Assembly: GCF_900105625.1 (NCBI RefSeq)
Contig: NZ_FNSD01000001.1
Coordinates: forward strand, 62,001-126,000
Source: Terriglobus roseus
GTDB lineage: Bacteria; Acidobacteriota; Terriglobia; Terriglobales; Acidobacteriaceae
Direction of reading: 5' to 3'
DNA: 64,000 bases
The stretch's first letter is position 1, and each line of letters begins with the position of its first letter. A program made the position numbers and the translations under genes. The notes beneath the pieces are model-generated. The model saw only the letters and a list, made by a program, of their open reading frames with translations, was not told where the DNA came from and did not search any database. Shown here piece after piece: positions 7,380-25,657 of this stretch.

Positions 7380-7474
7380 ATACGGCCTCGCAAACTTCTG
7401 CATTGCCGTGGGAAGCCCCATCCAGAAGCGAGTATAGCAGAGCTTGAGCCCTGAACGAAGCGCGCGCACTTGCT

Positions 7475-8429: not shown

Positions 8430-11399
8430 ATGGAGCAGAACGGTCCGCTGCAGTTTGGACCCTATGTTGTGCTGGAACAGATCGGAACTGGAGGCATGGG
8501 CGCGGTGTATCGCGCGCGCGACCGTCGCCTTGAGCGCGATGTCGCCATCAAGGTTCTGCATCGCCATCTGGAAATGGTTGGCGCACGGGAACGTTTTCTG
8601 CGCGAGGCTCGCGCAGTCTCTTCACTGAACCATCCGAACATCTCGACCATTTTTGACATTGGCGAGCAGGACGGCGATCCGTACCTGGTAATGGAACTGC
8701 TGCATGGCAAAAGCCTGAAAGAGCGCCTGGTGGATGGCGCTGCGGTGTCGGCCTCAGAATTGGAATTGATTGCGGTACAGGCTGCACAGGCCCTTGCTGC
8801 TGCCCATGCCAAAGGCATCGTTCATCGCGACATCAAGCCGGCAAACCTCTTCCTGGTCAACGGGCCACACGGCGAAAAGCAGTTGAAGGTGCTGGACTTC
8901 GGTCTTGCCAAGATGGAGTCGGACCGCGTGCTCTACGGGGACAAGGGGGGACTGACACGGACGGGCTCCACCGTGGGAACTGTTGAGTACATGTCGCCGG
9001 AGCAGGCGCGCGGGGAAGACCTGGATGCGCGGTCTGACTTGTTCTCACTTGGCGCTGTCCTGTACGAGCTTGCGACGGGTGATGTACCGTTTCGCGGCGC
9101 GACCAGTGCTGTGGTCTTCGCAGAACTGCTGGGCAACGATCCAGTGCCGCCCCGTACGCACAACTCGCACGTGTCACCGGCGATGGATGCAGTCATCCGC
9201 AAGCTCCTGGAGAAGAAGCGTGAGAACCGCATCCAGTCTGCAAAGGCCTTGCTGGAAGATCTGAAGACCGCGAGCGAGGCGGCCACAGCAGCGCCCGTGC
9301 TTGCAGCCCGACCATCTGCCTCGGCTATCACCGCTGCGCCGCCCATGACAGTCGCCGCCCCCATCACGGGAGCCTCACCTGTGACGACGCCTCCGACAAA
9401 AGCGCCTGGACCGAGTAACAATCCGCCGAAACACATCGTACCGGTGCCAGAGCCTACGGTTCGCGGCCCACGCATCAAGCCTTCCGGTAGCCGCCCTTCC
9501 GAGCTCTATAAGCGCGGCTCAGGCGGCAGGCCGTCCATGGTGCGTGAAGCGCCTCCGACTCGGGAGAGTGTCGCAACGAAGCTTCATGCGACGGCGCCAC
9601 CTTCGACGGAAGAGGAAGCGACGGGCGCAAGTCGGTGGTGGATGGCGGCGCTTGCTGTTCTGCTGCTTGCCGGTGCCGGGGCCATTCTTTACTTTCGTCC
9701 GAAGGCCGTTATGGCACCGGCCGTGGTGGCCCTCAGTGGGTCTCTGCAAGTGACACAGTTCGACAATGCGACGGGAGAACTCGCTCTGCAGGAGGCGCCC
9801 GCGGTAGCTATGCAGATTCTGCTGCAGGAAACGCCGTCGCTGCACCTTGCAGGTTACGCTCCGGCGGCCGACACGGTTGAACTGGACGCTTCGGAGCTGG
9901 CAAGACGGAGCGGCTCAGAGGCGTACCTGACCGGTTCCATATCGCGTGATGGAGAACGCTATCGCATCCACGCCGAGATCCTTAAGACCGCGGACGGCTC
10001 CAGGCTGGCGCAGGAGGATGCCGACGCCGCAACGATGACCGAACTGCCGGGCGCCTTCAGCCGGCTGGCAGCTGCGCTGCGTGCTCACCTGGGCGAGTCT
10101 CCAGCTCAGGCGGGCGCCATCCAGCTGGCATCTGAGGCTACCGCGTCTTTGCCTGCTCTGGCTCTGTACTCTCGAGGTGCGTCGCTTCTGCGGTCTGGAC
10201 AAGCACTGGCTGCAATCGAGCAGTTCAATAAGGCATTGGTAGAAGACCCGGGCTTTCCGACGGCGCGTCTCGGTCTCGTGGAAGCGTTACGCCAATCAGG
10301 TGCCGAGCCAGAGAGGCGACGGGCGGCTCTGGCGCTTGCGCCCCTTGCGCCGCAAGTGGGTATCTGTGAGAAAGCACGCATTGGGTATGAGACTGCCGAC
10401 GCTGCTAATGTGCTCGACGCAGCACAGGCTTGGGCGAAGCATTGTCCGAACCAGGCAGATGCGGAGATCGCAGTCTCGCGGCAGCTCCTCGCAGCCGGGA
10501 GGAGCGCTGCGGCGGAGGCAGCAGGCAACAGGGCCGTGGCGCTGGATCCCCCTGGCCGTGCAGCCATCACCGCATCCACGGAAGCCATGATTGCGCAGGG
10601 TCACTTCGAATCGGCACAGAAGCAACAAGCCCGTGCAGCGACGGCAAGTGCTTCCTCGCCCGGATTAATCCTGCTGGCTGCTTATCTTCGTGGCGACGTC
10701 GCCGCAGAGTCGGAAGTAGCAACATTGGCTGAGATTTCGCCTTCCTGGCAGGATCAGTGGAACTTCGTAACCTATCTCTCCAACCGAGGTCGTCTGGCGG
10801 AGGCGGCGCGGTTTGGAGCAGCAGTAGCTTCCCGGGTCGAAGTGCAGCCAGATGTAGCTTCGACGGCGATTCTGATGCGGACGCGTGTCGCGGCCATGCA
10901 GGCGATGGCCGGTCACTGCGAGGAAGGCGGTGTACTTGGAGACGGTGCCGGTGACCTGGCACAGTTCTACGCGGAGATCGCCAGCGCATGGTGCAGACAT
11001 GCGCCCGAAACGACTGACCCAGGCGATGCAAATCTGACGATGATCGCTCGCGCAGCGGCTCTATGGAGTAGCGGCAACCCACAGGAAGCGCTGAATATTC
11101 TCCAGTCAACCCACCCTGGCGTGGAGGCACCGATGGCTGCCATGCTGCGCGCAGAGTCACACCTCGCGCTCAAGCAGCAGGTACTGGCCATCGGCGACTA
11201 CAAGGCGGTCCTCTCCGGGCGTGGGGCAGCGGTGCTGACTGGTACGATCGTCTATCCCGCGGCGCAAGCGGGCCTGGCCACGGCGTATCACACGATGGGC
11301 GACGAACTTAACGCTACCCGCGTGGCAGACGACCTGAAGATGCTATGGACCGACGCATCGCCCGGCGAGCCGCTGCTCAAGCGCGCTCAGAAGCGATAG
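8430..11399 (+). CDS. PknB-type Ser/Thr protein kinase with TPR domain
   Basis: 989 aa. Residues 10-275 are a Hanks-type kinase with GTGGMG (19-24), the ATP-binding Lys41 in VAIK, catalytic HRDIKPAN (Asp134), DFG (156-158) and SPE in the activation segment, so it should be active. A Pro/Ala/Thr-rich linker (about 275-400) leads to one membrane helix (about 402-421, WWMAALAVLLLAGAG). The C-terminal region, outside the cytoplasm by this topology, is helical with TPR-like repeats (for example SLPALALYSRGASLLRSGQALAAIEQFNKALVEDP, seen near residue 570-605). The ATG at 8430 has AGGGAG about 8 nt before it; the longer frame from 8262 lacks homology. Such kinases are numerous in Acidobacteria; the target is unknown. 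Confidence 0.9.
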   Translation: MEQNGPLQFGPYVVLEQIGTGGMGAVYRARDRRLERDVAIKVLHRHLEMVGARERFLREARAVSSLNHPNISTIFDIGEQDGDPYLVMELLHGKSLKERLVDGAAVSASELELIAVQAAQALAAAHAKGIVHRDIKPANLFLVNGPHGEKQLKVLDFGLAKMESDRVLYGDKGGLTRTGSTVGTVEYMSPEQARGEDLDARSDLFSLGAVLYELATGDVPFRGATSAVVFAELLGNDPVPPRTHNSHVSPAMDAVIRKLLEKKRENRIQSAKALLEDLKTASEAATAAPVLAARPSASAITAAPPMTVAAPITGASPVTTPPTKAPGPSNNPPKHIVPVPEPTVRGPRIKPSGSRPSELYKRGSGGRPSMVREAPPTRESVATKLHATAPPSTEEEATGASRWWMAALAVLLLAGAGAILYFRPKAVMAPAVVALSGSLQVTQFDNATGELALQEAPAVAMQILLQETPSLHLAGYAPAADTVELDASELARRSGSEAYLTGSISRDGERYRIHAEILKTADGSRLAQEDADAATMTELPGAFSRLAAALRAHLGESPAQAGAIQLASEATASLPALALYSRGASLLRSGQALAAIEQFNKALVEDPGFPTARLGLVEALRQSGAEPERRRAALALAPLAPQVGICEKARIGYETADAANVLDAAQAWAKHCPNQADAEIAVSRQLLAAGRSAAAEAAGNRAVALDPPGRAAITASTEAMIAQGHFESAQKQQARAATASASSPGLILLAAYLRGDVAAESEVATLAEISPSWQDQWNFVTYLSNRGRLAEAARFGAAVASRVEVQPDVASTAILMRTRVAAMQAMAGHCEEGGVLGDGAGDLAQFYAEIASAWCRHAPETTDPGDANLTMIARAAALWSSGNPQEALNILQSTHPGVEAPMAAMLRAESHLALKQQVLAIGDYKAVLSGRGAAVLTGTIVYPAAQAGLATAYHTMGDELNATRVADDLKMLWTDASPGEPLLKRAQKR

Positions 11400-11427
11400 A
11401 GAAAGCACTTGAGACCCTTCCGCTGAC

Positions 11428-12687
11428 CTAATGCTTCGGAGTTGCAGCCTTCTGTGATTTCGTTAGATTCTCAGCCAGGAACAGGCCGCTCTTGCCCGCA
11501 CTGACGATATCGATATCGCCGTCGCCGTCGATGTCGGTTGATACCGTCTGCACACCACCACCCATGCGTCCGCCGTAGTCGACGATGTGGCGCGTCCACT
11601 CGACGCCGCCATTGGCCGGGTTAGCTTTATCGGCTGGCAGCTTGCGCCACTCATACCAGTACAGTCCAATCGGATCGCGTTCGCCGGGATCGCCGCCGTT
11701 GTGCGCGAAGTAGCGCTTGCCCGTCACGAAGTCGGGCTGGCCATCTCCGTTCATGTCGACGAGTTGTGAAGCGTGAGCCTGCGACCACGAACTATCGATC
11801 ACATGCTGTATCCACTTACCATCGGCAGTCTGCTCATACCAGGCCACGCCGTAGTCATGCGCCATGCCGGTCAACAGGTCTTTACGACCATCGCCATTGA
11901 TGTCGAGGAAGTGCATGTAACCGAACTGAGCACCACCGCGTGCCGCAGCTGCGGAGAGTCTCGCCTGGTCGGCCGGAGTGCCAGCAGGTGGAATGTACTT
12001 CCATCCCCAGTCGGTGGCATGGAAGACCCAGTCGCCTTCGGCGTGTATGTCCGCAGGTGCCTCGAGCCATCCCTTCGGTGTGAGGATGTCATTGCGGCCA
12101 TCGCCGTTGACATCGCCCACGCCGATCCCATGGCCGTAGCTAATCTTGGAGACGACGTGCTTTATCCACTTGCCATGGACGAGCTCAAACCAGGCGGCCG
12201 GCACGTTGGGACGATCGAACTCCGGGAGCAGCTCATTGGCCTTGCCGTCGTTGTTCAGATCGACCAGGAAGGCGAACTCCGTCGGGCCACTATCGTCAAT
12301 CTGCGTCTGCTTCCACGGCCCACCGGCCTTGCCCGGATTTTTGAGCCAGACGATGTCGTGCGCGAAGTAGCTGAACTGGAGGACATCCGTCCATCCGTCG
12401 CCGTCCACATCCATCGGCAGGTCAGAGAAGTTGTCGATGTAGCCGTTCAGGTAGTCGATCTGGCGCAACGGATGCTTCGTCCAGCGCGGAGCCTCGTACC
12501 AGCTTTCCCCTGAGATGATGTCGGGCTTGCCGTCGCGGTTCACATCTGTGACCGCGACCGTTTCACCGTATCCGGGGTCGATCATGCTCACGTGAAAGGC
12601 GATATCGGGCGACCTGCTCGCGGCGAGTAGCGCGGCAGCGCAACCGGCGATAGCGACCGACAACAGTGATTGCAGAGCAGTGCGCAT
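11428..12687 (-). CDS. secreted FG-GAP/VCBS repeat protein
   Basis: About 419 aa with a signal peptide (MRTALQSLLSVAIAGCAAAL). At least seven calcium-binding FG-GAP type loops of the pattern D-N-N/D-G-D-G-x-x-D-hydrophobic are visible: DVNRDGKPDI, DVDGDGWTDV, DLNNDGKAN, DVNGDGRNDI, DINGDGRKDL, DMNGDGQPDF and DIDGDGDIDI. These should fold into a seven-bladed beta-propeller. Exported; ligand unknown. An upstream ATG at 12720 would add 11 residues. The gene is convergent with the kinase gene, with a 28-bp gap. Confidence 0.85.
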   Translation of the reverse strand: MRTALQSLLSVAIAGCAAALLAASRSPDIAFHVSMIDPGYGETVAVTDVNRDGKPDIISGESWYEAPRWTKHPLRQIDYLNGYIDNFSDLPMDVDGDGWTDVLQFSYFAHDIVWLKNPGKAGGPWKQTQIDDSGPTEFAFLVDLNNDGKANELLPEFDRPNVPAAWFELVHGKWIKHVVSKISYGHGIGVGDVNGDGRNDILTPKGWLEAPADIHAEGDWVFHATDWGWKYIPPAGTPADQARLSAAAARGGAQFGYMHFLDINGDGRKDLLTGMAHDYGVAWYEQTADGKWIQHVIDSSWSQAHASQLVDMNGDGQPDFVTGKRYFAHNGGDPGERDPIGLYWYEWRKLPADKANPANGGVEWTRHIVDYGGRMGGGVQTVSTDIDGDGDIDIVSAGKSGLFLAENLTKSQKAATPKH

Positions 12688-12720
12688 GCGAGAAAAGCCC
12701 CTTGGATTGAAACGTCTCAT

Positions 12721-13265
12721 TCGGGGAGGATTCTAGCGGCTTCGAAGGGCAATGAGCAACGCGCACCCAACGCCGCGTACACCACTGAGTTCATTCGATA
12801 TCACTGGCATGGAGATGTCTGTCTCATGTTCCTGCAACACGGACCGAGCCTGCCAAGAACCAATTTCGATCGGGTACCGAGACCTGTGCAGGGTTCGCAT
12901 CTCTCCTTCGCTTCCGAATTTTCTTTTCTTTGCGACTGGGACCGGTCATAATTCCAGCGTTCCGCAACCCACATCATCTCCAGTTATATAAGTCCGAAAT
13001 GCAACGACATTCCGGTTCGTATGAAGGTGCCCGACACTGTATACAAGCAGGCCTGCGCATCATCGCGGCTATGTGTGAGCTTTCTTGATGTCTGACAGGT
13101 ATTTCAAGTGAGGAATGCCTTTGCAAAGCACGGGATGGCACAGCCCTTTACGACGAGCAAGAACAACATCGTCGCGACCTCACAGTCTGCGGCCGCGTAG
13201 AAGCTCAGATTTTTATGTAGGCAATAGCCTGCAAACAAACCAGCACCAGATGGGTGGTAATTAAT
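12721..13265. other. intergenic region before the lysozyme gene
   Basis: About 545 bases between divergent transcription units without a supportable gene. Open frames on the plus strand at 12670-12991 lack domain signals. The last 60 bases are AT-richer and hold a short dyad AGGCAATAGCCT (about 13219-13230). It must carry the promoters for both the FG-GAP and lysozyme genes, but none is clear. Confidence 0.5.
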
Positions 13266-13889
13266 ATGGCCATTGACGCGATCGTTGATCTTTCTCACCA
13301 TAACAATAAGACAGACCTGGAAGCAGCTCGTAGGAGCGGCATACTGGGTGTCATTCACAAGGCCACCCAGGGCCTCACTTATACCGACCCCTTCTATGCT
13401 CCGCATCGCACGGCAGCACGGGCAGCAGGGTTGTTATGGGGCGCCTACCATTTCGGCGATGGTTCCGACGGCCTGCAGCAGGCGGAGCGTTTTCTCAGCG
13501 TCGTGGGAGATCCACGGGGCATGCTTCTCGTGCTGGATTTTGAAGCCAACCCGGTCGGTCCGAGCATGTCTCTGGAAGAAGCTCGGGCGTTTGTAACTCA
13601 CGTGCAGTCCGCAACCGGAGTCTGGCCCGGACTTTATTGTGGTCACTACATCAAGGAGCTCCTCGGGCCGAAGAAGGATCCGGTGCTTGCGAACTGCTGG
13701 CTCTGGATCGCGCAATATGGTCCCACACCTGTAGTCCCGGCGACATGGAAGACATGGACGATGTGGCAGTATACCGATGGTGCCGCTGGTCTAAATCCAA
13801 AGCCAGTTCCGGGAATAGGATTATGTGATCGCGATCAGTTCAATGGAACGCAGGAGGGCCTGAACGACCTCTGGTCCGCCATTCACTGA
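13266..13889 (+). CDS. GH25 family lysozyme (muramidase)
   Basis: 207-aa glycoside hydrolase family 25 enzyme, cutting the MurNAc-GlcNAc beta-1,4 bond of peptidoglycan. The expected acids are in place: Asp8 in IVDLSHHN and Asp91/Glu93 in LVLDFEANP; GAYHFG and LWIAQYG ... WTMWQYTDG complete the barrel. There is no signal peptide, lipobox or wall-binding repeat, so it looks like a phage endolysin or a protein released by another route. The ATG at 13266 follows GGTGG by about 8 nt; an upstream GTG at 13254 would add four residues. It is the first of five co-directional genes. Confidence 0.9.
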   Translation: MAIDAIVDLSHHNNKTDLEAARRSGILGVIHKATQGLTYTDPFYAPHRTAARAAGLLWGAYHFGDGSDGLQQAERFLSVVGDPRGMLLVLDFEANPVGPSMSLEEARAFVTHVQSATGVWPGLYCGHYIKELLGPKKDPVLANCWLWIAQYGPTPVVPATWKTWTMWQYTDGAAGLNPKPVPGIGLCDRDQFNGTQEGLNDLWSAIH

Positions 13890-13936
13890 GTCGCTCGATG
13901 TTTCGATGACTCTGTCATGCCCGAAGTTATTACTCG

Positions 13937-14314
13937 ATGTCTTATGAGATGCAGAGAACCATGGGGGCGCGCTTGGACCCGTCGAAGCTACTCCATCAGG
14001 AAGCGCTTCTCTTTCTCTCCCTGGTGGGCGCAACGCTTATCTACAGGGCACTGACTGGGAGGCTCGTCACCTCGGGCCTCTTGTCAGACCGATTGAATGG
14101 CAGCACCAGTCCCGAGAGAGTTCAGTTGTTGATCGCCACCTTAGCGATCGCCGGACACTACCTGCGTGATGCGATTCACGGCAACGGCACAACGTTACCG
14201 AGTGTCAACATCACGTCGCTGCTTCTGTTCGGTGGAAGCAGTGGCATATATGCCGCCGTGAAATATGCCCGGCTTCAAAGACACTCGGGCAGTCAAAAGG
14301 GAGAGCTGAAATGA
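13937..14314 (+). CDS. small membrane protein, paralogue of next gene
   Basis: Up to 125 aa (ATGs at 13937, 13949 and 13961 are possible; no clear Shine-Dalgarno). Three hydrophobic stretches: EALLFLSLVGATLIYRAL, RVQLLIATLAIAGHYL and ITSLLLFGGSSGIYAAV. The order 'NGS.S..R.QLLI.T..IA ... LLLFG.SS.IYA..K' is shared with the following gene, so the two look like diverged tandem copies. It overlaps the next gene by ATGA. Placement after a lysozyme invites the idea of a holin-like or pore role, but that is inference only. Confidence 0.7.
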   Translation: MSYEMQRTMGARLDPSKLLHQEALLFLSLVGATLIYRALTGRLVTSGLLSDRLNGSTSPERVQLLIATLAIAGHYLRDAIHGNGTTLPSVNITSLLLFGGSSGIYAAVKYARLQRHSGSQKGELK

Positions 14315-14748
14315 CTTTGATGTTGTTGATTTGCAGCTATGGCGTCTGTCTCTTTATGGGACTGCTCTGTGCGACGTTGCTCTGGTTCATCTGGTCGGAC
14401 AAGATTGACCTGACCCGCCTGATTGCCGAGGCCAATGGATCCGCGAGTATGTCGAGGTTCCAACTCCTCATTTTTACCTTTGTTGTCGCGATCAGCCTTT
14501 TCATGATGACCGTAAGGACAGGAAGCTTCCCCCAGATTCCGGATGGAGTGCTCGTGCTTCTGGGAATCAGTGCGAGCACATACGCGGTCGGCAAGGGAAT
14601 TTCCTACAGTCGCGATGAAGGAGTGACTACGCCGCAGGAGCGGCAGGACACCCGCTATGTGGCTGAAACCATCTCAGCGACGGGAGCTGCCACCATTGCG
14701 ACCGCCGCCGGCATAGCATCATCCGGTGCAAGCAACACCGAAAACTAA
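14311..14748 (+). CDS. small membrane protein with SRFQLLIFTFV motif
   Basis: 145 aa with three predicted membrane helices (LLICSYGVCLFMGLLCATLL, FQLLIFTFVVAISLFMM, and VLVLLGISASTYAVGKG). Between helices 1 and 2 is LTRLIAEANGSASMSRFQ, a cytoplasmic-type loop; the tail (residues 95-145) is polar, Ala/Thr-rich. The pattern S-R-F-Q-L-L-I-F-T ... IP.GVL.LLGIS..TY is one I have seen in unannotated bacterial membrane proteins. Start fixed by GGGAGAG 5 nt upstream of the ATG and by ATGA overlap with the preceding paralogue. Function unknown. Confidence 0.75.
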   Translation: MTLMLLICSYGVCLFMGLLCATLLWFIWSDKIDLTRLIAEANGSASMSRFQLLIFTFVVAISLFMMTVRTGSFPQIPDGVLVLLGISASTYAVGKGISYSRDEGVTTPQERQDTRYVAETISATGAATIATAAGIASSGASNTEN

Positions 14749-14814
14749 AGCCCAGGCTTGGCAGATGCCCGCCAGAAAATCGAGACCACGCTGCCCCGAA
14801 AGACAGGAATGCCG

Positions 14815-16146
14815 ATGAAGAAAAGCGCACCGCGAGGTCGCTTGGTCCGGATCGTGGGGCCAATGATCCCTGTCGCGTTGGCTCTTGGGACTGCTGCCAT
14901 TTCACGCAGCCATAATCCACCGAAACCTCTCCCTTTTGCAGCTATCCAAATCAACGGAGACGACACATTGGCTGCGGCTGTGGCGAATGGCGCGCCGGTG
15001 CCATTGCTTGCCAAAGGGCACCCCGTGGACTGGTGGTTCGTCTTCAAGATGAACGCCGCCGTCTTCCCGGCTTGCGGTGGTGCCGTTGGATCCTGCCCGT
15101 TCGGTGGGACTGTCCAGCCATATAAAACATTTGGTCAGCAATATGTTTACGCGAGCAGCGAATCGCAATTTCTCCAGGATAGAGTTAAGGATTGCGTCGG
15201 CACGACTGATTCCGATCCCGTTGGAGCGAGCTTCAACGAGGTCTATAACGGAAACTACCACTACGTGCTCTGGAACGATCAGTTCTACGATGATCCACTT
15301 CCAATCCGGGGCGCACCTTGGGGACACTCCAAGGGAATGCTTGCATGGGATGATGCTGGTCAGGGATTTGTCATGCAGGTCTCAACACCTTCCTGGCCAG
15401 GCGCTGGAAACGTGAAGAGTCCAAGATTGACCGACGGGAACACGCTTGGGTGTATCAAAGATAACGACGTTAAGGTAAGCCAGCATTTTCTTGCTCTGCG
15501 TTTAACGAAGGACGATTTGATTCTCGTGCTGCAGGGGATGAAGAACTCCAGTGTCGTTACGAATCCGACTTCAAGTCAGCTGGTAAGTAATGGTGGCCCG
15601 TCCGATGTGCAGGCATTGGTCAACGGTCTGGGAAAGCTCTCTGACAGCGAGGCGCTTGTGCAGGGGACGCTTTCTTCAGGGTTCCGTTTCATCTCAAAGC
15701 CGTCCAGCATGAACGTACCGCCGTGGCAGATGGTATCGGCAACCTTGGGTGGTATTGGGCTTCGCGCGGCTACCTGGTGGGCCAACCCGGAAATCCCATC
15801 GACAACGACAGATTCGACGATCACTTGCTGGGATGAATCCCTGGGGACACCTGGACCTGTGGAGATTGCTACGGCTGGCACGTGGGAAGGAAGGGTCTTC
15901 TCGCTGGCAGGCGGTCTTGGAGCAAACTTTAATCATGCGAAGATTGGCGTATCCACGACCCGCACACAACCCTACGTCATCTTCGGTGATGAAAACCAAC
16001 AGGGGACTCTCGTCAAGAGCGCCGCAGGCAAATGCGACAGTAGTCAGAACGGCAGAGGCGGAATGTTCTATGCGATCTCTAGTCCGCAACTGAACGGCAG
16101 TATTGGTAACCTGATCGCTGGAGACACGGCGTCCTCAGGTAACTAA
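14815..16146 (+). CDS. secreted DNase II-family protein
   Basis: 443 aa with an N-terminal hydrophobic export segment (RIVGPMIPVALALGTAAI). The body matches deoxyribonuclease II, the acid, metal-independent nuclease of the phospholipase D-like fold: VDWWFVFK near the N-terminus, YHYVLWNDQ, then WGHSKGMLAWD with the first H-x-K (His171, Lys173), GQGFVMQVSTPSWP, a Cys in TLGCIKD, and the second H-x-K in FNHAKIGVS (His374, Lys376). Both catalytic pairs are intact. The family is best known from animals and a few bacteria such as Burkholderia. The ATG at 14815 has AGGA 7 nt upstream; an in-frame TTG at 14758 is less likely. It should act outside the cytoplasm. Confidence 0.85.
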   Translation: MKKSAPRGRLVRIVGPMIPVALALGTAAISRSHNPPKPLPFAAIQINGDDTLAAAVANGAPVPLLAKGHPVDWWFVFKMNAAVFPACGGAVGSCPFGGTVQPYKTFGQQYVYASSESQFLQDRVKDCVGTTDSDPVGASFNEVYNGNYHYVLWNDQFYDDPLPIRGAPWGHSKGMLAWDDAGQGFVMQVSTPSWPGAGNVKSPRLTDGNTLGCIKDNDVKVSQHFLALRLTKDDLILVLQGMKNSSVVTNPTSSQLVSNGGPSDVQALVNGLGKLSDSEALVQGTLSSGFRFISKPSSMNVPPWQMVSATLGGIGLRAATWWANPEIPSTTTDSTITCWDESLGTPGPVEIATAGTWEGRVFSLAGGLGANFNHAKIGVSTTRTQPYVIFGDENQQGTLVKSAAGKCDSSQNGRGGMFYAISSPQLNGSIGNLIAGDTASSGN

Positions 16147-16290
16147 TAATTTCCCGATAATCATCTTCCTGACCGTTGTTGCATAAGTCGCTCACTGCGC
16201 GCACGTTTCAATGGCATAAGTTACGGCGCACGGGCTGAAGGGCAAAGTCAGCAGTGTGCACGTAAGTAGATTGGTGCACCTTACGGTTTG

Positions 16291-16309
16291 AATAATGAAA
16301 ATAATTATC
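16291..16309. promoter_or_regulatory. Fur-box-like dyad
   Basis: AATAATGAAAATAATTATC matches the 19-bp Fur consensus GATAATGATAATCATTATC at 16 of 19 positions by eye. It abuts the -35 box of the promoter that follows, the position expected for a repressor. The surrounding DNA is unusually AT-rich, so a chance match cannot be excluded. Confidence 0.4.
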
Positions 16310-16337
16310 TTGACTTCGGATAGCCGCTTGTTAGGAT
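16310..16337 (+). promoter_or_regulatory. sigma-70 type promoter
   Basis: TTGACT (16310-16315), 16-bp spacer, TAGGAT (16332-16337). Predicted start of transcription near 16344, giving a leader of about 214 nt. Confidence 0.5.
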
Positions 16338-16557
16338 TCCACCACTGTGTCATGACGATGGCCGACAAGCCCCTGTTGCTGAAATATGCGACTCAGCGAT
16401 GGTGACATCGACGATTAGAGACTGCGGGACAGCGATGCTGGGATCGCATCGCACCTTGCCGCTGGTGACCGTGTGCGAATGCGGTGCCTTCTTGCTTCCT
16501 GCGCAAGGGACCTGAGCGGTCATATCACAGGGCACATCCTTCTTTGGGAGATTGAGC

Positions 16558-19500
16558 GTGGCCAAGTTTGCCCGAACCTTCACGGTTGCATTCACCCTCA
16601 TGGCCAGCGCCCTTTTCCAGTCCGGAAGGACCGTCTCATCCGCGCCGAAGGAGTCGCCTACTCCGAAGACAACTCCGGTCTCGGCTAAAGGGATTCCTGG
16701 TCAACAAGTCATGGGAGAGGGTCCATGGATCGCATCGTGCCGGTATTGGGCGGCCGTGTACCGTCCCGAGATCACAAAGGCCAATCCAAGTGCCACCACA
16801 GACGCCGCGGTGTCATCGATGCCTACGGCGGGGTGTGGCTCGCCGGAAGGCGTGGGCTGGAATATTCCGAGAGATGACGCCAAGGCCGGCAACACAGCGG
16901 CCTCGCCTGCCTCTGACATAACCTCCCTGATTGCCGTCGTTCCAGATCCTGTTCACAGCGGACTTTCGTTGGATTTCGACAGGACATTGGAGTCGGTCCT
17001 TCTTGCGGCGGCAGATGGACATTACCTGAGCGACTACTACTGGCTACCGTGGCAACATCGCAGCGAGTCAGCAAGTTCCGCTGCTCCATCGGATGAGCGG
17101 GATTCACAACGCGAGCGACTGCCTGGGCTGATTATCCTGCGCTATGTTCCAGAGACGAAGCAATGGCCCCGGAAGGAAAAACGAGCCTCCCCGTTGAAGA
17201 CGGGTGGCCCCGTCGCGCGTGCAACTGCCGATGACTCCTGGAAAAGCTATCGAAAGGTCGTATATCTCTTTCTGGTCGCTGAGACTCCAGCGCTTGGCAT
17301 CAATGGTGAGCAGTTACAGAATGCCTTGCGCTTCGAGGCGTATCTTCGCAATCGTCATCATGCTCATCTATCACTCCAGCACGACGGAGTGGATTCGACC
17401 GCGCCTCTTGAAACCGCAGAGACCCCACGGTTTGATCGATTAACGGGACGGGTTCACAGCCGCCTATCTTCGCGTGCACCGCTGGGTGGCACAACAGAAG
17501 TCCGAAATAGCGACAATGAAAAGACGACACGGGAAGGGAAGACTGCCGAAGTGCTCTCGGTGATTGGGCCGTCTTATTCCGGCACAGCCGCCTCACTTTA
17601 TGCAGGGTTGACGGCCAGTCTACCGGAGATGGGAAACCCCACGCTCTCGGTCATTGGAGTGACCAGTACGGCCATTGCCTCGCACGCGCTCGATCCGAAC
17701 GGGCAGGGCTCCTACCGATCATTTGGAGAGAATACCGGCTTTGAGCAGGACCGCTTTCTCGAAGCGCTCGTTCGGTCTGGGTTTGATCTGAGCCGGGTTG
17801 CCGTGCTGTCTGAGGCAGGCACCGTCTTCGGCTCAACGAGCGGAGAGACCGCCTCGAGTGCCTCAACGAAAACCTCAGGACGCGAGGGGGATCGCAATGA
17901 GTGTCCGACTGGCGAGCGGGGGTGTTACCGCCCCGGCGACAAGCCATTGAATAGCGTTGGCACGATCCTCAACCTGCGGTTTCCACGAGAGCTATCGGTG
18001 GTGCGCAACGCGATGGCCAGTGAGGTGAAAGGAGGAGCACCGACGCCATATCTCGGTTTCTCGCTCAAGGGCGATGCCGCGGACGATACGGTGGAGCATT
18101 TTTCAACGACGCAGACACCACTCTCCATCGAAGCGCAGTTGATGGCGATCGCAAATCAACTCAAGCGAGCACGGACACAGTTTGTGCTGATCTCCGCCTC
18201 TAACATTCTGGACGACGTATTCCTGGCAGACTTTCTGCACCGCGCCTGTCCTGATGCACGGATCGTCACATCGAGTGGCGGCGATCTTCTCTTTGAGCGG
18301 GAGGGTGAGAATGCGTCCTATGTTGGTTCGCTCTCGCTCTCACCGTATCTGCTGTCGTCACTTGACTTCACGCGGCGAACGCAGTGGCTGCACTCGGACT
18401 ATCACTCCGCGGAGATGTACAACGCGGCAAGCTTCGCATTCCGCAATTCGACTTCTCGTTCTGAGCCCGTCCTATCAGGCTATCTACGTCGCTCAAAGTC
18501 TCTTGCGGATGGAAAAACCCTGGTGAGCCAGATACCGCTGTGGGCTTCGGCCATCGGCGCGGACGGATACTACCCGCTTGGTCTTCTGAGTTGGTGCGGG
18601 AGTGACAGTTCGACCATCCTGCCAAGCATTTCGCTCGATCCAAAAGCGGGTGCGGCGCCCGCGCTGGCGCTCTGCACGGAAGACGACGTGCTGCCGCGAA
18701 AGGCGAATGCCGAACTGAACGACACGCAAGTGCGTGTTCCGGAATCGATTAACTCAAATTCAGGCATTGTTCCCGGCCTGCCATGGCAGATTCTTGCCGG
18801 CGTACTGTGCGTCGCATGTCTCATCCACACTGTCGGCCTGCTGGTGGCAGACCTATGGTCACCGTTCACACGGGATGTAGCCATTGACCAGAATGACTCA
18901 CCGCATCGACGAGCTGTCTATATCAACATCGGTGGATCGGTCCTGGCAGCGATGGCCTTCGTCGTTGCGTATCCTTTGCTGCGCGTAAGTCATTACTTTC
19001 ACGTAACACCGGGCTCCTTGTCGGTAGCCGCTGTGTTGATGTGCTGTGCCGCGTTTGTGTGCGTGTCAACCGCATGGAAGACCAGGCGTTACTTCTACCA
19101 TCCGAAATGCCGCCCTTACACCTTCTTCAATTTCGTTGCTGTGTTGGCACTCGCTGGGATCGTGCTCCTCTGGGCCCGCATCTGCAGCAGCGATACGTTG
19201 TATGGGTATCCAAATTTCGCGGGGCTCTATCATAGCTTCCGGTGTCTTCAGCCTTTCAGCGGCGTTAGTCCCATCTGCCCCGTGGTATTGGTGCTGTTTG
19301 CCTGGTATCTATGGGCTATCTATCAGACCGCAAGACTCCGGTTCTCGCATATTCACAGGCCGCGCCTTCCACGAAAGGTACCGGACGGTGCGAATCATGA
19401 AGCCTCTCCGATGTTTGTTCCGGACGATGTTCTGGAAGCGTGTGAGACGCCAAGGAGCACCTGTCTTTACGCAGACATGACGAGCTTGCTCATCACTCGT

Positions 19501-20706
19501 GAGATCGCCGCGCGCTTTCTGAGTAAGTCGTTCCATCGCTGGCTCGATACCGCGCTTGGATGTGTCTACGTGGTCCTCTTTCTTGGATGTCTCGTCTTGT
19601 TCCGAATTCACGGGCTTGATCGATTTGTCTTCAGGCCTGTCCTGTTTTCGTGGGGGCCGACGCTCTACGAAGCTCTTCTGAAGGCCCTCTTCTTCCCGCT
19701 ATTGATGGTGGCTCTCTCGGGTTGGCTGCGGGTGCTTTTCGTCTGGACGGCACTGAATCGCGGGTTGCTGGAACCCTTGGAGCGTATGCCAATCCGCTTC
19801 GCTTTTGATCGTTATAAGAGCGGCGGCTGGATGAGCATGCTCCGACAGAAAGGTCTGCATATTCGCTGGCGTGAGATGTCCCGGTCCACGGAGACCATCC
19901 GCCAGATCGTCCGCCATCCTGAACTCGCGCAGGATCCCCAACTGCAGTCAGAACTTCTGGCTCAGCATCAGATCATCAATCTGCAGATTCATAATCTGAT
20001 GAAGAGTATTGGCAGCGGCAAGAGATCCGCCTCTGGGTTGATCCCGGCGAGTGCGGCTGCTGTGGATGTAGAGGAACAATCATGTCCGTCGGAACAGCTT
20101 TGGGATATGCCCAAGGACTGCGCGGACACGTGCAGCATCTTTCACATTGAATCTGGCTACGCGGAGTTCAGCACGCTACTGGTTGGACGATACCTGATGG
20201 AACGCTGGGGTAAGAGAGTCGGTGGTGTCAATGACCCAGCACCGACGACAAAGCAGGACAAAGCCAATACAGACGAAGGGGTGACGGCTCCTGTTTCGCT
20301 GGAACAGCTTGCCGAGGACCTGATTGTCATTCGCTATGTCGCGCTGATTCGGGCGGTCCTACTCAACATCCGGTATCAGATGCTGATTGTCGGGAACACC
20401 TTCGTTCTTGCACTTATTGCGTGGAACTCATTTCCCTTTGAGCCACACGCCTTTATGGACTGGGGCTTCACGTTCCTGCTGGGCGCGCTCAGCGTGGGCT
20501 TCATTGGAGTCTTCGCCCAGATGCATCGCAGTGCAATTCTGAGCCGAATCACGGACACCACTCCCAACGAACTCGGATCGGATTTTTACCTCCGGATCGC
20601 CACTTTCGGCGCGGTCCCGCTGCTCACCTGGATTGCCTACGAGTTCCCGCAGATTGGAGGCACTGTCTACAAGTTGCTGCAGCCCGGCTTGCAGGGGATG
20701 AAGTAA
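16558..20706 (+). CDS. giant sensor-like protein: PBP-like domain plus about ten membrane helices
   Basis: 1382 aa. A signal-like N-terminus (FTVAFTLMASALFQ) leads to a periplasmic region of about 700 residues. Residues 320-700 resemble a type I periplasmic binding protein of the branched-chain amino acid group: VLSVIGPSYSGTAASLYAGL, LSVIGVTSTAIASHAL, SYRSFGENTGFEQDRFLEAL, VAVLSEAGTVFG, then a second lobe with FVLISASNILDDVFLADFL. From about residue 740 about ten membrane helices follow, interrupted by a charged helical cytoplasmic stretch (about 1100-1180). No kinase, GGDEF, ABC or channel signature is recognised. The GTG at 16558 has GGGAG 7 nt upstream; a TTG six bases earlier is too close. 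Separate promoter from the DNase II gene. Confidence 0.75.
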   Translation: MAKFARTFTVAFTLMASALFQSGRTVSSAPKESPTPKTTPVSAKGIPGQQVMGEGPWIASCRYWAAVYRPEITKANPSATTDAAVSSMPTAGCGSPEGVGWNIPRDDAKAGNTAASPASDITSLIAVVPDPVHSGLSLDFDRTLESVLLAAADGHYLSDYYWLPWQHRSESASSAAPSDERDSQRERLPGLIILRYVPETKQWPRKEKRASPLKTGGPVARATADDSWKSYRKVVYLFLVAETPALGINGEQLQNALRFEAYLRNRHHAHLSLQHDGVDSTAPLETAETPRFDRLTGRVHSRLSSRAPLGGTTEVRNSDNEKTTREGKTAEVLSVIGPSYSGTAASLYAGLTASLPEMGNPTLSVIGVTSTAIASHALDPNGQGSYRSFGENTGFEQDRFLEALVRSGFDLSRVAVLSEAGTVFGSTSGETASSASTKTSGREGDRNECPTGERGCYRPGDKPLNSVGTILNLRFPRELSVVRNAMASEVKGGAPTPYLGFSLKGDAADDTVEHFSTTQTPLSIEAQLMAIANQLKRARTQFVLISASNILDDVFLADFLHRACPDARIVTSSGGDLLFEREGENASYVGSLSLSPYLLSSLDFTRRTQWLHSDYHSAEMYNAASFAFRNSTSRSEPVLSGYLRRSKSLADGKTLVSQIPLWASAIGADGYYPLGLLSWCGSDSSTILPSISLDPKAGAAPALALCTEDDVLPRKANAELNDTQVRVPESINSNSGIVPGLPWQILAGVLCVACLIHTVGLLVADLWSPFTRDVAIDQNDSPHRRAVYINIGGSVLAAMAFVVAYPLLRVSHYFHVTPGSLSVAAVLMCCAAFVCVSTAWKTRRYFYHPKCRPYTFFNFVAVLALAGIVLLWARICSSDTLYGYPNFAGLYHSFRCLQPFSGVSPICPVVLVLFAWYLWAIYQTARLRFSHIHRPRLPRKVPDGANHEASPMFVPDDVLEACETPRSTCLYADMTSLLITREIAARFLSKSFHRWLDTALGCVYVVLFLGCLVLFRIHGLDRFVFRPVLFSWGPTLYEALLKALFFPLLMVALSGWLRVLFVWTALNRGLLEPLERMPIRFAFDRYKSGGWMSMLRQKGLHIRWREMSRSTETIRQIVRHPELAQDPQLQSELLAQHQIINLQIHNLMKSIGSGKRSASGLIPASAAAVDVEEQSCPSEQLWDMPKDCADTCSIFHIESGYAEFSTLLVGRYLMERWGKRVGGVNDPAPTTKQDKANTDEGVTAPVSLEQLAEDLIVIRYVALIRAVLLNIRYQMLIVGNTFVLALIAWNSFPFEPHAFMDWGFTFLLGALSVGFIGVFAQMHRSAILSRITDTTPNELGSDFYLRIATFGAVPLLTWIAYEFPQIGGTVYKLLQPGLQGMK

Positions 20707-20750: not shown

Positions 20751-21608
20751 TTAGTAGGTGATGGTTGCGGTGATGGAGTCGGAATAGTTTCCAATAGGAA
20801 CGATCTGACCGGCCGGTATCTTTCCGTACACCGTGATCGGTTGCAGCAAGCCGGTCGCTACGCCAGTGAGCGTGTCGGAACCGCTGGTCGCTCCCCAGTT
20901 GAGTGTCATGGCAGCATCGCGGTATAAGCCGTATGAGAGCATCCCCCCGTTTGGGCCCGCCATCTTCCGTGCACTGGGCGTTGCACCGGTCGTTGTCCCT
21001 GCACTGAGCGCGATGTCATAGGTGATGTTGGCGGTGCATGTAAGTGAGATGGTCGATGTGCTGGCGATGGCACTACCTCCGTAACTTCCAAAGGCCATCG
21101 ATGTTGAAAGCACAACGCAAAGCCCTGTCGCATTCGCGATCACTGGCACGTTTACGGAGTACGTTCCCCGGTTCGAAGTCACACTCACGGTCACGGCGTC
21201 TGTGTATTCGCCTTGCGGTGACGGTTGGCCTTGCAGCAGGACAGGATAGATATTGAAGCGCTGGACGCTGCCTGTACCCACACCGGCGACCACGTCTGTT
21301 CCAATCTCACTGCCCCAGTTCACGCTGTGTGCGGCGTCCTGGAAGAGCTGATAATTCAACTTGGCACCGCGGCTCCCTCGCATCGCGCGAACTGAATTCG
21401 ACGCGCCACCAGCGTTGCTCCTGAGACCGATGGTGTACGAAGTGGAGGGAGGGCATACCACGGAGACAGGTGTGACGCCTGTGGCAACGCGCGAGCCGGC
21501 ATAGGTTCCAAGGTGAATGGCTGGCACCGAGATCGAACACGGAGGATTCTGAGCGATTGCCGCAGGCGCCAGGAGGAGGCAGAGCCATAGGAGCAAGTGG
21601 TGTCTCAA
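20751..21608 (-). CDS. two-domain spore-coat-U (SCPU) protein, probable pilus tip adhesin
   Basis: About 285 aa, exported (LLLWLCLLLAPAAIAQ). Two tandem SCPU domains, each starting with a Cys near a first beta-strand (CSISVPAIHLGTYAG and LCVVLSTSMAFGSYGG) and each ending with the Y-x-D-x-(V/I)-x-V/I-x-(V/I) strand (EYTDAVTVSV, NYSDSITATITY). This is the architecture of the CsuE tip adhesin in archaic chaperone-usher pili. I place the start at the TTG at 21608: AAGGAG lies 8 nt upstream and the TTGA overlaps the usher stop, indicating translational coupling. Last gene of the pilus operon. Confidence 0.85.
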   Translation of the reverse strand: MRHHLLLWLCLLLAPAAIAQNPPCSISVPAIHLGTYAGSRVATGVTPVSVVCPPSTSYTIGLRSNAGGASNSVRAMRGSRGAKLNYQLFQDAAHSVNWGSEIGTDVVAGVGTGSVQRFNIYPVLLQGQPSPQGEYTDAVTVSVTSNRGTYSVNVPVIANATGLCVVLSTSMAFGSYGGSAIASTSTISLTCTANITYDIALSAGTTTGATPSARKMAGPNGGMLSYGLYRDAAMTLNWGATSGSDTLTGVATGLLQPITVYGKIPAGQIVPIGNYSDSITATITY

Positions 21609-23944
21609 TGTGTGCGCTCCTTGCAAGGGAAGGGGCCGAGCAGTGGGATGTCTCCGGGAGTCGGCTTGTAGGAGAAGCTTACTGTGCAGTGTTGGCCATC
21701 GGGCATCACGACGTCCAGTTCGTTCTTTGGTTCGAGGTCTTGAAGGAAGACACTGCCGTCATAGCCTACCGTCACAGCAGTTTTCGTCGACCGAAGGGTT
21801 GCCATGCTACCCACCGGCTCGGGAATGCCCGTGCTGTCGGTGATGTGGAGCAGCGCGCTATGACCAGCGCGGATCTTGAAGCGAACGATGACCCCGGAAA
21901 GGTCTCGTGGACGAAACGTTTGCGCGGCGTTCTCAATGGTTGCATCGATTGGAATGCCGGTCGGATCGATGGACAGGTGGTTCGGTTGGAACGACCGCAC
22001 ATTGGCAATCAACAGCTTGCCCGATCGTCCGGTGTCGCCCACGGGTCGGTTCTCTTCGAAAATCTTCACGTGACGCTCGGAGCCGGTGTCCACCACGGCG
22101 AAGCTGTCGAATATCTCGTTTGAGGCGAAGATCCTGCGGTCAACCAGCGAAAGCGCGCCCTGGGTCTCGACCCGGCCAGTCACCACACCGAGCGTCTGAT
22201 CGACGCCTCCGACGATGTAGCCAAGGTGAGACCGATATTGCACTTCGGCGAACTGATGATTGAAACTGCCCGCCTGGACATAAGCGCCGTAGCCCCACTG
22301 ACCTACGTCTGTCGCTGGTCGCCGCACCTGGATCTGTCCGCTGCCGTCCGAGGTGCCGGAGATGTCAACGGATACCCGCGAACCAAAGGCAAAGGTTATT
22401 CCACCCTGGAAGCCCTGACTGTTGTTACCACCGCCAATGCTACGAAACTCATTGGCATAGACCGTGACATGGCGAACCTGGACCGAGTAGTTGGCTGACA
22501 CGATGCGATTGCGCTGCGCCAGTTGCTGGGCAGAGAGGGATGCGTTGTAGTAGGACTCCTGGTTGACATCACCATAGGCCGCGCCGAAGGTACCGTAGTG
22601 TCGTGTGGTGTAGCCGATGTTGCCGCTGATCTGCGACCGTGCGATGGGCGCGTTGTTCAGCGCGGCGATGTCGGTATAGTCCTTACGCGTCAGCATGGCA
22701 TAGGCGCCGATACTAAACACTCGTCCGATACGCTCTGCCCCCAGCGATACCTGCTGCCCGTTGTGGCCATCGCCCAGACTTGAAGCAAACGAGGCCCGGA
22801 TGGTGCCAAGAGATCCAATGCGTACGATCCCACCGACACCAGGCGCGACCAAACCCTGGGCACCCTCTACCTTGCCTTCCACTGTGAAGTACGGGCTCAG
22901 TCCGCGACGATAGATGGCAGAGCCGGCAGCGTCGCCGTAGTGGTTGCTTTTATTGCCCCAGTCCAGGCGGACCAGACCAGCTTCCACAGCAAAAGTCTGT
23001 AACTTGGGCGCCAGCATCGCGGTACTCGCGTAGAAACGTTGTGTCACTGTCACTTGTTGCCCAAGCGCGTTCGTCACAGTAAGCGCGATGTTTCCAGCAC
23101 CCATTACGACTGGCAGTTGCGGCACCTGGAATGGTCCAGGCTCAACCTGCTGCGATAGAACCTGTGTTCCGTCAGCGAGGACATTGATGGTGGATGGGAC
23201 CGCTGCTGAACCGCGCACACTTGGAAGCGGGAAAGTTACAAGGTCAGGCCGTGTGCTGAAGTCAGAGCGAAGCTGTAAGCCCGTCAGATGTACTGGTCTT
23301 GTCCACGACAATCCTGTCGTAACGAAGTCACCCACGCTGTAACGCCGCATCGTGTCCACGTCCGCGTACTGATAGGTCGTGTCGAGCCGGACGGCGGCAT
23401 TCGGGCCGTACGGCCCGGGCACTCCGCCGGCGTAACCCAGCCAGCTTGAAGAGATACTCCCTCGGGGAAAAAACGCTCTTACATTCACCTGCCCGTTCAC
23501 GCCGCTATTGGAACTGGCCAAGGTGCTCAGCAGGTCATAGTTCAGGGTCACGCCAGCCGAGCTCTCGACGTTGCGATGCATCTCGGGATCCGCGGGATTA
23601 TCGAGCGTCAAATCGGAAGGCTTCAACGAGCGGCCATCGGTACTTAGGAACAGCACCTGCGCCTGCGTGTCGATGTGCCATACCGCCAGAGGAATCTTGT
23701 GAAGGTCCGTCCACTCAGACGTGCTGCCGGGAATCAGCAGACCCAGATCGCGTAGATCTTCCGTCCGCGCGAGAAGTGTGTCGTCATGTTGCGTGAACTC
23801 GACGATCTTGTGAGTCGCGCGACCGTCGACATTGACTTCCAGCAGCAGAGACTGGTCTTGACCGAAGCATGATCTGGAAGAGAAAACGCACATCAGAAAC
23901 AACAGACCACCCAGCAGCCAAGGCTGGTGGCACGATCTGATCAT
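21605..23944 (-). CDS. outer membrane usher of chaperone-usher pilus
   Basis: 779-aa usher (CsuD/FimD class). Signal peptide (LLGGLLFLMCVFSSRSCFGQ), N-terminal chaperone-binding domain, 24-strand pore with plug (for example FTVEGKVEGAQG and ASFASSLGDGHNGQQ repeats of GSLG-type strands), then C-terminal domains with the GYDGSVFLQDL and CTVSFSYKP elements. It binds chaperone-subunit complexes and secretes and assembles the pilus. It overlaps the chaperone stop by ATGA and the adhesin start by TTGA, so the three are a tightly coupled operon. Confidence 0.92.
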   Translation of the reverse strand: MIRSCHQPWLLGGLLFLMCVFSSRSCFGQDQSLLLEVNVDGRATHKIVEFTQHDDTLLARTEDLRDLGLLIPGSTSEWTDLHKIPLAVWHIDTQAQVLFLSTDGRSLKPSDLTLDNPADPEMHRNVESSAGVTLNYDLLSTLASSNSGVNGQVNVRAFFPRGSISSSWLGYAGGVPGPYGPNAAVRLDTTYQYADVDTMRRYSVGDFVTTGLSWTRPVHLTGLQLRSDFSTRPDLVTFPLPSVRGSAAVPSTINVLADGTQVLSQQVEPGPFQVPQLPVVMGAGNIALTVTNALGQQVTVTQRFYASTAMLAPKLQTFAVEAGLVRLDWGNKSNHYGDAAGSAIYRRGLSPYFTVEGKVEGAQGLVAPGVGGIVRIGSLGTIRASFASSLGDGHNGQQVSLGAERIGRVFSIGAYAMLTRKDYTDIAALNNAPIARSQISGNIGYTTRHYGTFGAAYGDVNQESYYNASLSAQQLAQRNRIVSANYSVQVRHVTVYANEFRSIGGGNNSQGFQGGITFAFGSRVSVDISGTSDGSGQIQVRRPATDVGQWGYGAYVQAGSFNHQFAEVQYRSHLGYIVGGVDQTLGVVTGRVETQGALSLVDRRIFASNEIFDSFAVVDTGSERHVKIFEENRPVGDTGRSGKLLIANVRSFQPNHLSIDPTGIPIDATIENAAQTFRPRDLSGVIVRFKIRAGHSALLHITDSTGIPEPVGSMATLRSTKTAVTVGYDGSVFLQDLEPKNELDVVMPDGQHCTVSFSYKPTPGDIPLLGPFPCKERTH

Positions 23945-24720: not shown

Positions 24721-24785
24721 CGCGGCAACACTATTAGGTTTGGAGAAAGAGGTGGACGGCCTGGATCGACCGCGCACAGGGATCG

Positions 24786-24836
24786 GTACGGCCCCCATCA
24801 AAATCGTGCCGGGGCACTGCGCAGATGGGGCCGTAC
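24786..24836 (-). terminator. strong stem-loop between pilin and chaperone genes
   Basis: GTACGGCC(C)CCATC at 24786-24799 pairs with GATGGGGCCGTAC at 24824-24836 with one bulged C; a nested GTGCC/GGCAC hairpin lies in the loop (about 24106 bases from nothing else relevant; positions 24806-24816). No T-run follows on the minus strand, so it may be a partial terminator or an mRNA-stabilising structure that raises pilin output over chaperone and usher. Confidence 0.55.
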
Positions 24837-24847
24837 GACAAGCGACC

Positions 24848-25360: not shown

Positions 25361-25657
25361 GGAAAGCCTTGTCAATCGGGGGATTGTGTCTCCGATCCAG
25401 TCTGAAACATTCACGCTGAATACCGACGAGAATGGCCCTTATCCGGGGGAGCGATCCAGAGATTATCACTCTCATTTCAGATAACAATCCCCCATGCCTC
25501 AGAGTGATATCAAAATGAAACAAAACAATGCAGGCACGAATTTATAGCAGGAGACGTTTATGGCAGGGTCTGCATCCCCCCGCCTACGTCGAAAGGGGTA
25601 GGCCAGCTAACCTTCCGTGTAAGAGCTAACCCGGCTCACCTGTGGACGATGACGAGT

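What the first reader, a model, noticed from the sequence alone, without database searches (positions are those of the whole stretch)
13266..20706. Lysozyme, paired membrane proteins, DNase II and giant sensor as one locus
Five same-strand genes join two macromolecule-degrading enzymes (peptidoglycan and DNA) with two small paralogous membrane proteins and a very large receptor-like membrane protein. The lysozyme has no signal peptide, as in phage endolysins, and the pair after it could serve for export or as a pore. The nuclease is exported. This could be a contact-killing, lysis, nutrient-from-DNA or defence system. I know of no described system with this set; all functional claims are inference.
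Basis: partly seen in the sequence, partly recalled or inferred. Interest (0 to 1): 0.8.

Follow-up and report, generated by a model that had tools for sequence, protein, structure and literature searches.

The report
Tagged nuclease with paired membrane proteins
Three neighbouring genes form a recurring bacterial module in which two small membrane proteins travel with an interchangeable enzyme, usually of a DNA-related type and carrying a matching front-end tag; the lysozyme and the giant membrane protein beside it are optional neighbours.

Summary
The core is g2-g3-g4: two small paralogous membrane proteins plus a DNase II. In 30 distinct g3 loci (several phyla), a g2 precedes g3 in 29 (one more has an interrupted frame), and the next gene is exchangeable: DNase II in 5, an unnamed predicted OB-fold family in 13, Endonuclease_NS in 1, a peptidoglycan hydrolase in 3, none recognised in 7, contig edge in 1. 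The 19 nuclease/OB-type partners share an N-terminal tag (basic stretch, then P-[LVI]-[AGL]-[LIV]-[AGS]-[LF]) in 17 of 19, against 3 of 282 other hydrophobic N-termini; the pattern was drawn from these sequences. Three relatives of these enzymes away from a g2-g3 pair have ordinary signal-like N-termini. I infer that the pair reads the tag and places the enzyme at the envelope; whether it guards against incoming DNA or scavenges DNA is open. No homologue of the GH25 lysozyme or of the giant protein lies in any of the other 29 loci. The giant protein is a separate family; in two congeners it sits beside a contractile injection system. It occurs in 7 of 22 g3-bearing genomes (24 of 396 in the phylum draw), but far from g3.

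The parts
13266..13889 (+). g1: GH25 lysozyme, 207 aa (in-frame GTG at 13254 also possible), no hydrophobic N-terminus; optional neighbour, not part of the conserved unit
   Evidence: Pfam PF01183 3.4e-31; PHROG endolysin 4.4e-37; best phage match Wolbachia phage WO lysozyme, 48.8%; PDB GH25 muramidases; no homologue in the other 29 g3 loci; relatives without the pair
13937..14314 (+). g2: small membrane protein, 125 aa, first half of the pair
   Evidence: g2 profile found directly upstream of g3 in 29 of 30 loci; no Pfam, PHROG, NCBIfam or PADLOC match at E up to 1
14311..14748 (+). g3: small membrane protein, 145 aa, second half of the pair; overlaps g2 by 4 nt
   Evidence: 22 relatives in genome contigs; AlphaFold model with helices 2-28, 47-70, 78-102 and a helical tail, pLDDT 77; invariant G43 A45 S46 Q51 F55 V58 P74 G85 S87 K95 in 20 rows; only library match a weak PHROG 'membrane protein', E 0.028
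14446..14484 (+). conserved SMSRFQLLIFTFV core at the start of the second predicted transmembrane helix of g3
   Evidence: alignments A5/A8
14815..16146 (+). g4: DNase II, 443 aa, partner enzyme of the pair
   Evidence: Pfam PF03265 2.8e-18; both H-x-K motifs kept (GHSK in 5 of 5 rows, NHAK in the 4 rows that reach it); adjacent to the pair in 5 loci
14869..14886 (+). N-terminal tag PVALAL of g4, preceded by a basic stretch
   Evidence: tag pattern in 17 of 19 nuclease/OB partners versus 3 of 282 other hydrophobic N-termini
16303..16348 (+). promoter-like stretch upstream of g5 (TTGACT-16-TAGGAT with TG)
   Evidence: blastn 76% over 50 columns with the region upstream of the G013 orthologue (L031), E 0.002; similar by eye in G003; scan hit 16310-16337, in a scan whose number of hits did not exceed shuffles
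16558..20706 (+). g5: giant polytopic membrane protein, about 1382 aa, large N-terminal part and some 8-10 hydrophobic segments in the second half; separate family
   Evidence: hydropathy; homologues in 13 of 150 relatives and 24 of 396 phylum genomes, own genome counted; next to a contractile injection system in G013 and G003

Best explanation
g2-g3-g4 is a modular envelope system. Two small paralogous membrane proteins (three predicted transmembrane helices in g3) form an inner-membrane device that recognises a short N-terminal tag (basic residues, then P-[LVI]-[AGL]-[LIV]-[AGS]-[LF]) on a co-encoded enzyme and exports and/or tethers it at the periplasmic face. The usual partner is of a DNA-related type (here DNase II, elsewhere Endonuclease_NS or a predicted OB-fold protein); in some lineages it is a peptidoglycan hydrolase without the tag. 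I think the most likely job is to hold a nuclease where foreign DNA enters (phage, plasmid, transforming DNA), with DNA scavenging a close second. Shown: conserved gene order, partner exchange, the shared tag, and its absence in three unlinked relatives. Inferred: contact between pair and tag, export, location and role. g1 (GH25) and g5 (giant protein) are accessory neighbours in this strain; the g5 orthologues of two congeners sit beside a contractile injection system.
For: Gene order: g2 upstream of g3 in 29 of 30 loci over several phyla. Partner directly downstream, same strand: DNase II 5, OB-fold family 13, Endonuclease_NS 1, Amidase_2 2, M15 1 of 29 loci not cut by a contig edge. Tag: 17 of 19 nuclease/OB partners in three unrelated families; 3 of 282 background ORFs with a hydrophobic N-terminus; 0 of 3 unlinked relatives tested (L063, L186, L062), which have stronger, signal-like N-termini. 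Partner labels on the g3 tree: 7 changes (5 is the minimum), shuffled mean 15.5; the 5 DNase II loci share a supported branch with one OB-type locus. H-x-K motifs kept. OB-type partner: Foldseek's best matches are proteins that I recall to hold OB folds, many of them nucleic-acid binders.
Against: Seven pairs (5 Nostocaceae, L100, L101) have no recognised nuclease or wall hydrolase next to them, and three partners are tagless peptidoglycan hydrolases, so the pair cannot be only a tag-reading nuclease exporter. One DNase II partner (L183) lacks the tag, and one OB-type partner (L099) has it only with a final I. The tag pattern was drawn from the same sequences it was then counted on, and members of one enzyme family are not independent. 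A fourth unlinked DNase II (L185) shows by eye neither tag nor signal. Topology is unsettled: a PG-binding tail in L094 and by eye a Big-like tail in L084, L087 and L089 suggest the C-terminus is outside, while the charges of the window protein, read by eye, point the other way. Foldseek matches of the OB family are weak (best E 3.5e-3) and no catalytic activity is known for it. No PADLOC match for g1-g5. That no immunity gene stands out is by eye only; none was searched for. No test of export, binding or phage resistance exists.
Confidence: 0.55

Rival explanations
1. Holin/endolysin-like lysis or release cassette: g2-g3 act as holins that let the signal-less GH25 (elsewhere amidase or M15) reach the wall and release or co-release the nuclease, as in type 10 secretion.
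For: Pair of small membrane proteins; GH25 47 nt upstream of g2 without a hydrophobic N-terminus; Amidase_2 or M15 downstream of pairs in Geobacteraceae and Nostoc; a hydrolase-C14 caspase protein beside the amidase in L239.
Against: No holin family matched in PHROGs; of 20 g3 members one matches endolysin families, as expected from the PG-binding tail of L094. GH25 next to the pair only in this strain among 30 loci. Of 22 recognised partners 19 are nuclease/OB-type and 17 carry the tag. No spanin stood out by eye, but none was searched for.
Confidence: 0.2
2. DNA scavenging or uptake: the pair holds a surface nuclease that degrades environmental DNA for phosphate, nitrogen or transformation.
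For: DNase II is an acid nuclease by family knowledge (recalled), plausible in acid-soil bacteria; OB-type partners could bind single strands.
Against: By eye no phosphatase or competence gene recurs beside the module; MacB-like transporter genes do lie beside L080, L183 and L090, in L080 and L183 probably by shared ancestry. Peptidoglycan-hydrolase partners do not fit.
Confidence: 0.25
3. All five genes form one contact-killing or defence operon.
For: Same strand, short gaps from g1 to g4; g5 is over-represented in g3-bearing genomes: 7 of 22 versus 24 of 396; Fisher p 2.6e-4, computed against 21 of 392 after taking out the four g3 genomes of the draw, not corrected for kinship.
Against: No homologue of g1 or g5 in the other 29 g3 loci. 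In the seven genomes with both, g5 is on another contig in six and about 185 kb away in one. g5 has a promoter-like stretch of its own, and its orthologues sit at an injection-system locus in two congeners. g1 relatives lack the pair.
Confidence: 0.05

Closest known systems
SNIPE, membrane-bound anti-phage nuclease (PMC13190303; abstract, outline and section 9 read)
   Same: A nuclease is held at the membrane by its N-terminal region.
   Different: SNIPE is one protein with a GIY-YIG nuclease and DUF4041; here there are two extra membrane proteins, exchangeable unrelated enzymes, and (inferred) periplasmic placement.
Type 10 secretion system, holin-endolysin-spanin cassette (PMC10847048; passages read)
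   Same: Small membrane protein(s) beside a wall hydrolase; enzymes without standard signals.
   Different: No recognised holin family, no spanin noticed, most partners nuclease/OB-type with a tag, wall hydrolase variable or absent.
EndA-type membrane nuclease of natural transformation (recalled, not searched)
   Same: Endonuclease_NS-type enzyme anchored by its N-terminus at the cell surface; L097 carries that enzyme family.
   Different: A dedicated membrane pair; other enzyme families take its place; no competence genes noticed beside it.
CisA of the Streptomyces contractile injection system (PMC12237407; passages read), for g5 only
   Same: Membrane protein encoded beside an injection system; CisA has a domain resembling periplasmic substrate-binding domains, and g5 by eye a comparable N-terminal part.
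   Different: CisA is a single-pass protein (468 residues as modelled in the paper); g5 is about 1382 aa with many hydrophobic segments, and its family mostly occurs away from such systems.

Membership tests
DNase II (PF03265), g4 | Family profile over the curated cut-off and two H-x-K motifs | tested here: met
   66.6 bits versus cut-off 23; GHSK and NHAK conserved; that these are the catalytic motifs is recalled
GH25 lysozyme, g1 | Family profile over the cut-off and D-x-E active-site motif | tested here: met
   109.4 bits versus 27; LDFE aligned with LDIE of 2x8r; the motif's role is recalled
Phage holin families | Match of g2/g3 to a holin profile | tested here: not met
   No holin in PHROGs for g2 or g3 or for 20 g3 members at E up to 0.01
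Holin function | Timed membrane permeabilisation | not testable with these tools
   needs an experiment
Type 10 secretion system | Holin + endolysin + spanin cluster | tested here: inconclusive
   Wall hydrolase beside the pair in the window (GH25), L092, L239 and L094; spanins not searched for by profile
SNIPE | GIY-YIG nuclease with DUF4041 | tested here: not met
   Pfam and PADLOC scans of g1-g5 give neither
eCIS component or cargo, g2-g4 | Location in or beside an injection-system cluster | tested here: not met
   Own system lies about 150 kb away; in G386 about 660 kb away. Of ten other pair-bearing genomes searched, Pvc16_N is in G386, G531 and G534 and not in G014, G024, G086, G525, G535, G540, G541
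eCIS-associated protein, g5 | Constant linkage or co-occurrence with the system | tested here: inconclusive
   Adjacent in G013 and G003; Pvc16_N in 12 of 37 g5 genomes searched versus 4 of 18 genomes without g5: no general association
Known defence families (PADLOC) | Profile match | tested here: not met
   No match for g1-g5 at E up to 1

The most novel reading that the evidence does not exclude
The pair is a new, dedicated membrane device that reads a P-L-A-x-A-L-type tag and stations interchangeable nucleases (and, in other lineages, wall hydrolases) on the outer face of the inner membrane, so that foreign DNA is cut while crossing the envelope: an innate, sequence-blind immunity before entry that spares the chromosome by location alone.
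Probability: 0.22. Interest if true: 0.85.

Novelty: categorically new. Interest (0 to 1): 0.62.

Why it matters
A matching tag on three unrelated enzyme families next to the same uncharacterised membrane pair points to a recognition event that none of the four family libraries names. If the pair exports or tethers tagged enzymes, it is a small, testable protein-targeting system; if the role is DNA exclusion, it is a defence that discriminates by place instead of sequence. It also gives a genomic context for DNase II in these bacteria, where it is rare (4 of 396 phylum genomes).

Tried and rejected
One five-gene operon: rejected. GH25 as constant partner: rejected. g5 as a general injection-system part: not supported (Pvc16_N in 12 of 37 g5 genomes against 4 of 18 without). 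Known defence system: no PADLOC match for g1-g5. Spread by phages or plasmids: g3, DNase II and g5 not found in plasmids; one g3 relative (L093) not found in phages; no g3 relative in viral contigs by the pattern search. Weak g3-type hits, mostly longer proteins with g3-type repeats, were mapped and kept out of the 30-locus count; by eye no nuclease beside them, except that one (L062) lies next to an OB-family protein with an ordinary signal-like N-terminus. PDB sequence searches with DNase II, OB-family and g5 profiles gave no convincing match, and the g3 model had no PDB match. My first hand count missed the OB-family partner in L096, L098 and L099 and the upstream g2 in several loci because a greedy ORF picker chose the wrong frame; profiles corrected this. 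The first tag background (14 of 878) still held partner proteins and used another length limit for loci; the cleaned one is 4 of 1024 ORFs and 3 of 282 with a hydrophobic N-terminus, from which the L097 partner was not taken out. The g5 neighbour count leaves out five fragment loci (L038, L041, L043, L045, L046). Papers: the listings (titles and starts of abstracts seen; one search found none) show no description of this module; these were searches for related themes in one open library, so absence from print is not established.

Full report
What is there. The five ORFs exist as described. g1 is a GH25 lysozyme without a hydrophobic N-terminus. g2 (125 aa) and g3 (145 aa) overlap by 4 nt and are paralogues. 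g4 is a DNase II with both H-x-K motifs. g5 is a giant membrane protein without a Pfam family. I number genes by position.

Which genes belong together. In 150 relatives (own genome counted) g5 was found in 13, g3 in 6, two of them weakly, DNase II in 3 and g1 in 6. In G014 (89% complete), g2-g3-DNase II occur and g5 was not found. A scan of genome contigs (84,980 species, by strict patterns, so a lower bound) gave 22 g3 loci, L080-L101. I added the window, one locus from the phylum search (G386, L183), one from Geobacteraceae (G568, L239) and five from Nostocaceae: 30 loci. Some loci are close kin (L093/L095; the five Nostocaceae). Profile searches place g2 directly upstream of g3 in 29 of 30; in L085 its frame is interrupted. 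No homologue of g1 or g5 lies in the other 29 loci, some of which are short.

Exchangeable partner. The gene after g3, on the same strand, is a DNase II in 5 loci (window, L080, L081, L082, L183), a member of an unnamed family in 13 (L083-L087, L089, L090, L091, L093, L095, L096, L098, L099), an Endonuclease_NS in 1 (L097, E 1e-48), an Amidase_2 in 2 (L092, L239) and an M15/VanY peptidase in 1 (L094). In 7 (L100, L101, L246-L250) I recognised no such enzyme (only L101's next protein was scanned: no Pfam family), and L088 ends at the contig edge. The unnamed family has invariant D, H and E residues; its AlphaFold model (mean pLDDT 66, much of the core 80-92) matches best proteins that I recall to contain OB folds, many of them nucleic-acid binders, at weak E-values (3.5e-3 at best). 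On a tree of the 30 g3 proteins the five DNase II loci share a supported branch with one OB-type locus; all labels together need 7 changes (5 is the minimum), against 15.5 for shuffled labels. Partners are thus mostly inherited with the pair and sometimes exchanged.

The tag. Partners from the three unrelated nuclease/OB families begin with a basic stretch followed by P-[LVI]-[AGL]-[LIV]-[AGS]-[LF]: 4 of 5 DNase II, 12 of 13 OB-type (the 13th ends in I), 1 of 1 Endonuclease_NS. Among other ORFs of at least 150 aa in the fetched loci it is in 4 of 1024, and in 3 of the 282 with a hydrophobic N-terminus. Two DNase II proteins (L063, L186) and one OB-type protein (L062, beside a longer g3-repeat protein) that are not next to a g2-g3 pair lack it and have stronger, signal-like N-termini; a further unlinked DNase II (L185) has by eye neither. 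The peptidoglycan hydrolases and g1 lack the tag. The pattern was drawn from the same sequences, and homologous partners are not independent, so the Fisher values overstate the evidence; agreement between three unrelated families, and loss in unlinked relatives, are what carry the argument. This is the strongest hint that the pair recognises its partner.

How the pair may work. The g3 model has three long helices and a helical tail (pLDDT 77, no PDB match). In L094 the tail carries a peptidoglycan-binding domain, and in L084, L087 and L089 by eye a Big-like domain, which suggests a C-terminus outside; the charges of the window protein, read by eye, do not clearly agree. From this I infer an inner-membrane device that holds or passes the tagged enzyme at the periplasmic face. 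No immunity gene stood out in the maps (none was searched for), which would fit an enzyme kept away from the chromosome better than a toxin aimed at kin. Exclusion of incoming DNA, DNA scavenging and a holin-like release cassette remain open; I rank them in that order.

The optional neighbours. g1 relatives in G066, G058 and G073 (60-65% identical) and partial ones in G022 and G136 show no g2-g3-like gene nearby; the G058 contig ends about 760 nt after the gene. g5 belongs to a family found in 24 of 396 genomes of the phylum. In congeners G013 and G003 its orthologue lies divergent to the sheath gene of a contractile injection system. The matching system of the window's genome (G000:C1, about 213-235 kb; matched by gene order and sequence by eye) has no g5 in that slot, so g5 was probably moved from that slot to its place here; the direction is inferred. 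A promoter-like stretch is shared with G013 by alignment and with G003 by eye. The marker Pvc16_N is not generally tied to g5 (12 of 37 against 4 of 18). Of 37 g5 loci mapped (31, 6; five fragment loci left out), six have a lytic or DNA-degrading enzyme on the same strand within about 420 nt: patatins (L036, L138, L139), a muramidase (L148), a gasdermin-subtilase-M15 array (L034) and the window's DNase II; two more (L031, L032) lie beside the injection system. No chance-level control was run for this. g5 occurs in 7 of 22 g3-bearing genomes against 24 of 396 in the phylum draw; p is 2.6e-4 against 21 of 392, without correction for kinship, and the 22 include other phyla. In those seven genomes g5 is on another contig in six and about 185 kb away in one. 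So g5 and the module may serve related ends, but not as one operon.

Verdict. The unit is g2-g3-g4. The pair matches no named family in the libraries searched, and its most informative feature, the shared tag of its partners, was not in the original observation.

Noticed in passing
L034 (G057:C4), 6300-15878, minus strand: Same-strand array bacterial gasdermin (PADLOC bGSDM E 3.6e-74), subtilase, M15 peptidase, g5 homologue: a possible new gasdermin neighbourhood.
   Followed up: partly
L239 (G568, family of the Geobacter genome), 4771-8276, minus strand: Membrane pair, then Amidase_2 with SH3, then a protein with a C14 caspase domain (E 4.8e-31) and a weak hydrolase match.
   Followed up: partly
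L097 5422-6627 and L063 7197-8318: Tle1-like phospholipase genes beside the Endonuclease_NS pair locus and beside an unlinked DNase II; the latter region also holds a GH46/PG-binding protein.
   Followed up: no
L097 6561-7259, minus strand: A weak OB-family match (E 3e-8) on the other strand, upstream of the pair.
   Followed up: no
G000:C1:213000-235423 (L072, L073), outside the window: The window's genome carries a contractile injection system whose g5 slot is empty compared with G013 and G003.
   Followed up: partly
L061, L062, L187-L201: Longer proteins with g3-type repeats, several with a secreted-looking N-terminal part; function unknown, no constant neighbour seen by eye.
   Followed up: partly
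L240 10799-14596: 1265-aa protein without a Pfam match, 24 nt upstream of a g5 homologue.
   Followed up: no
window 20751-25414, minus strand: By eye, a chaperone-usher-like cluster with small secreted proteins next to g5, on the other strand.
   Followed up: no
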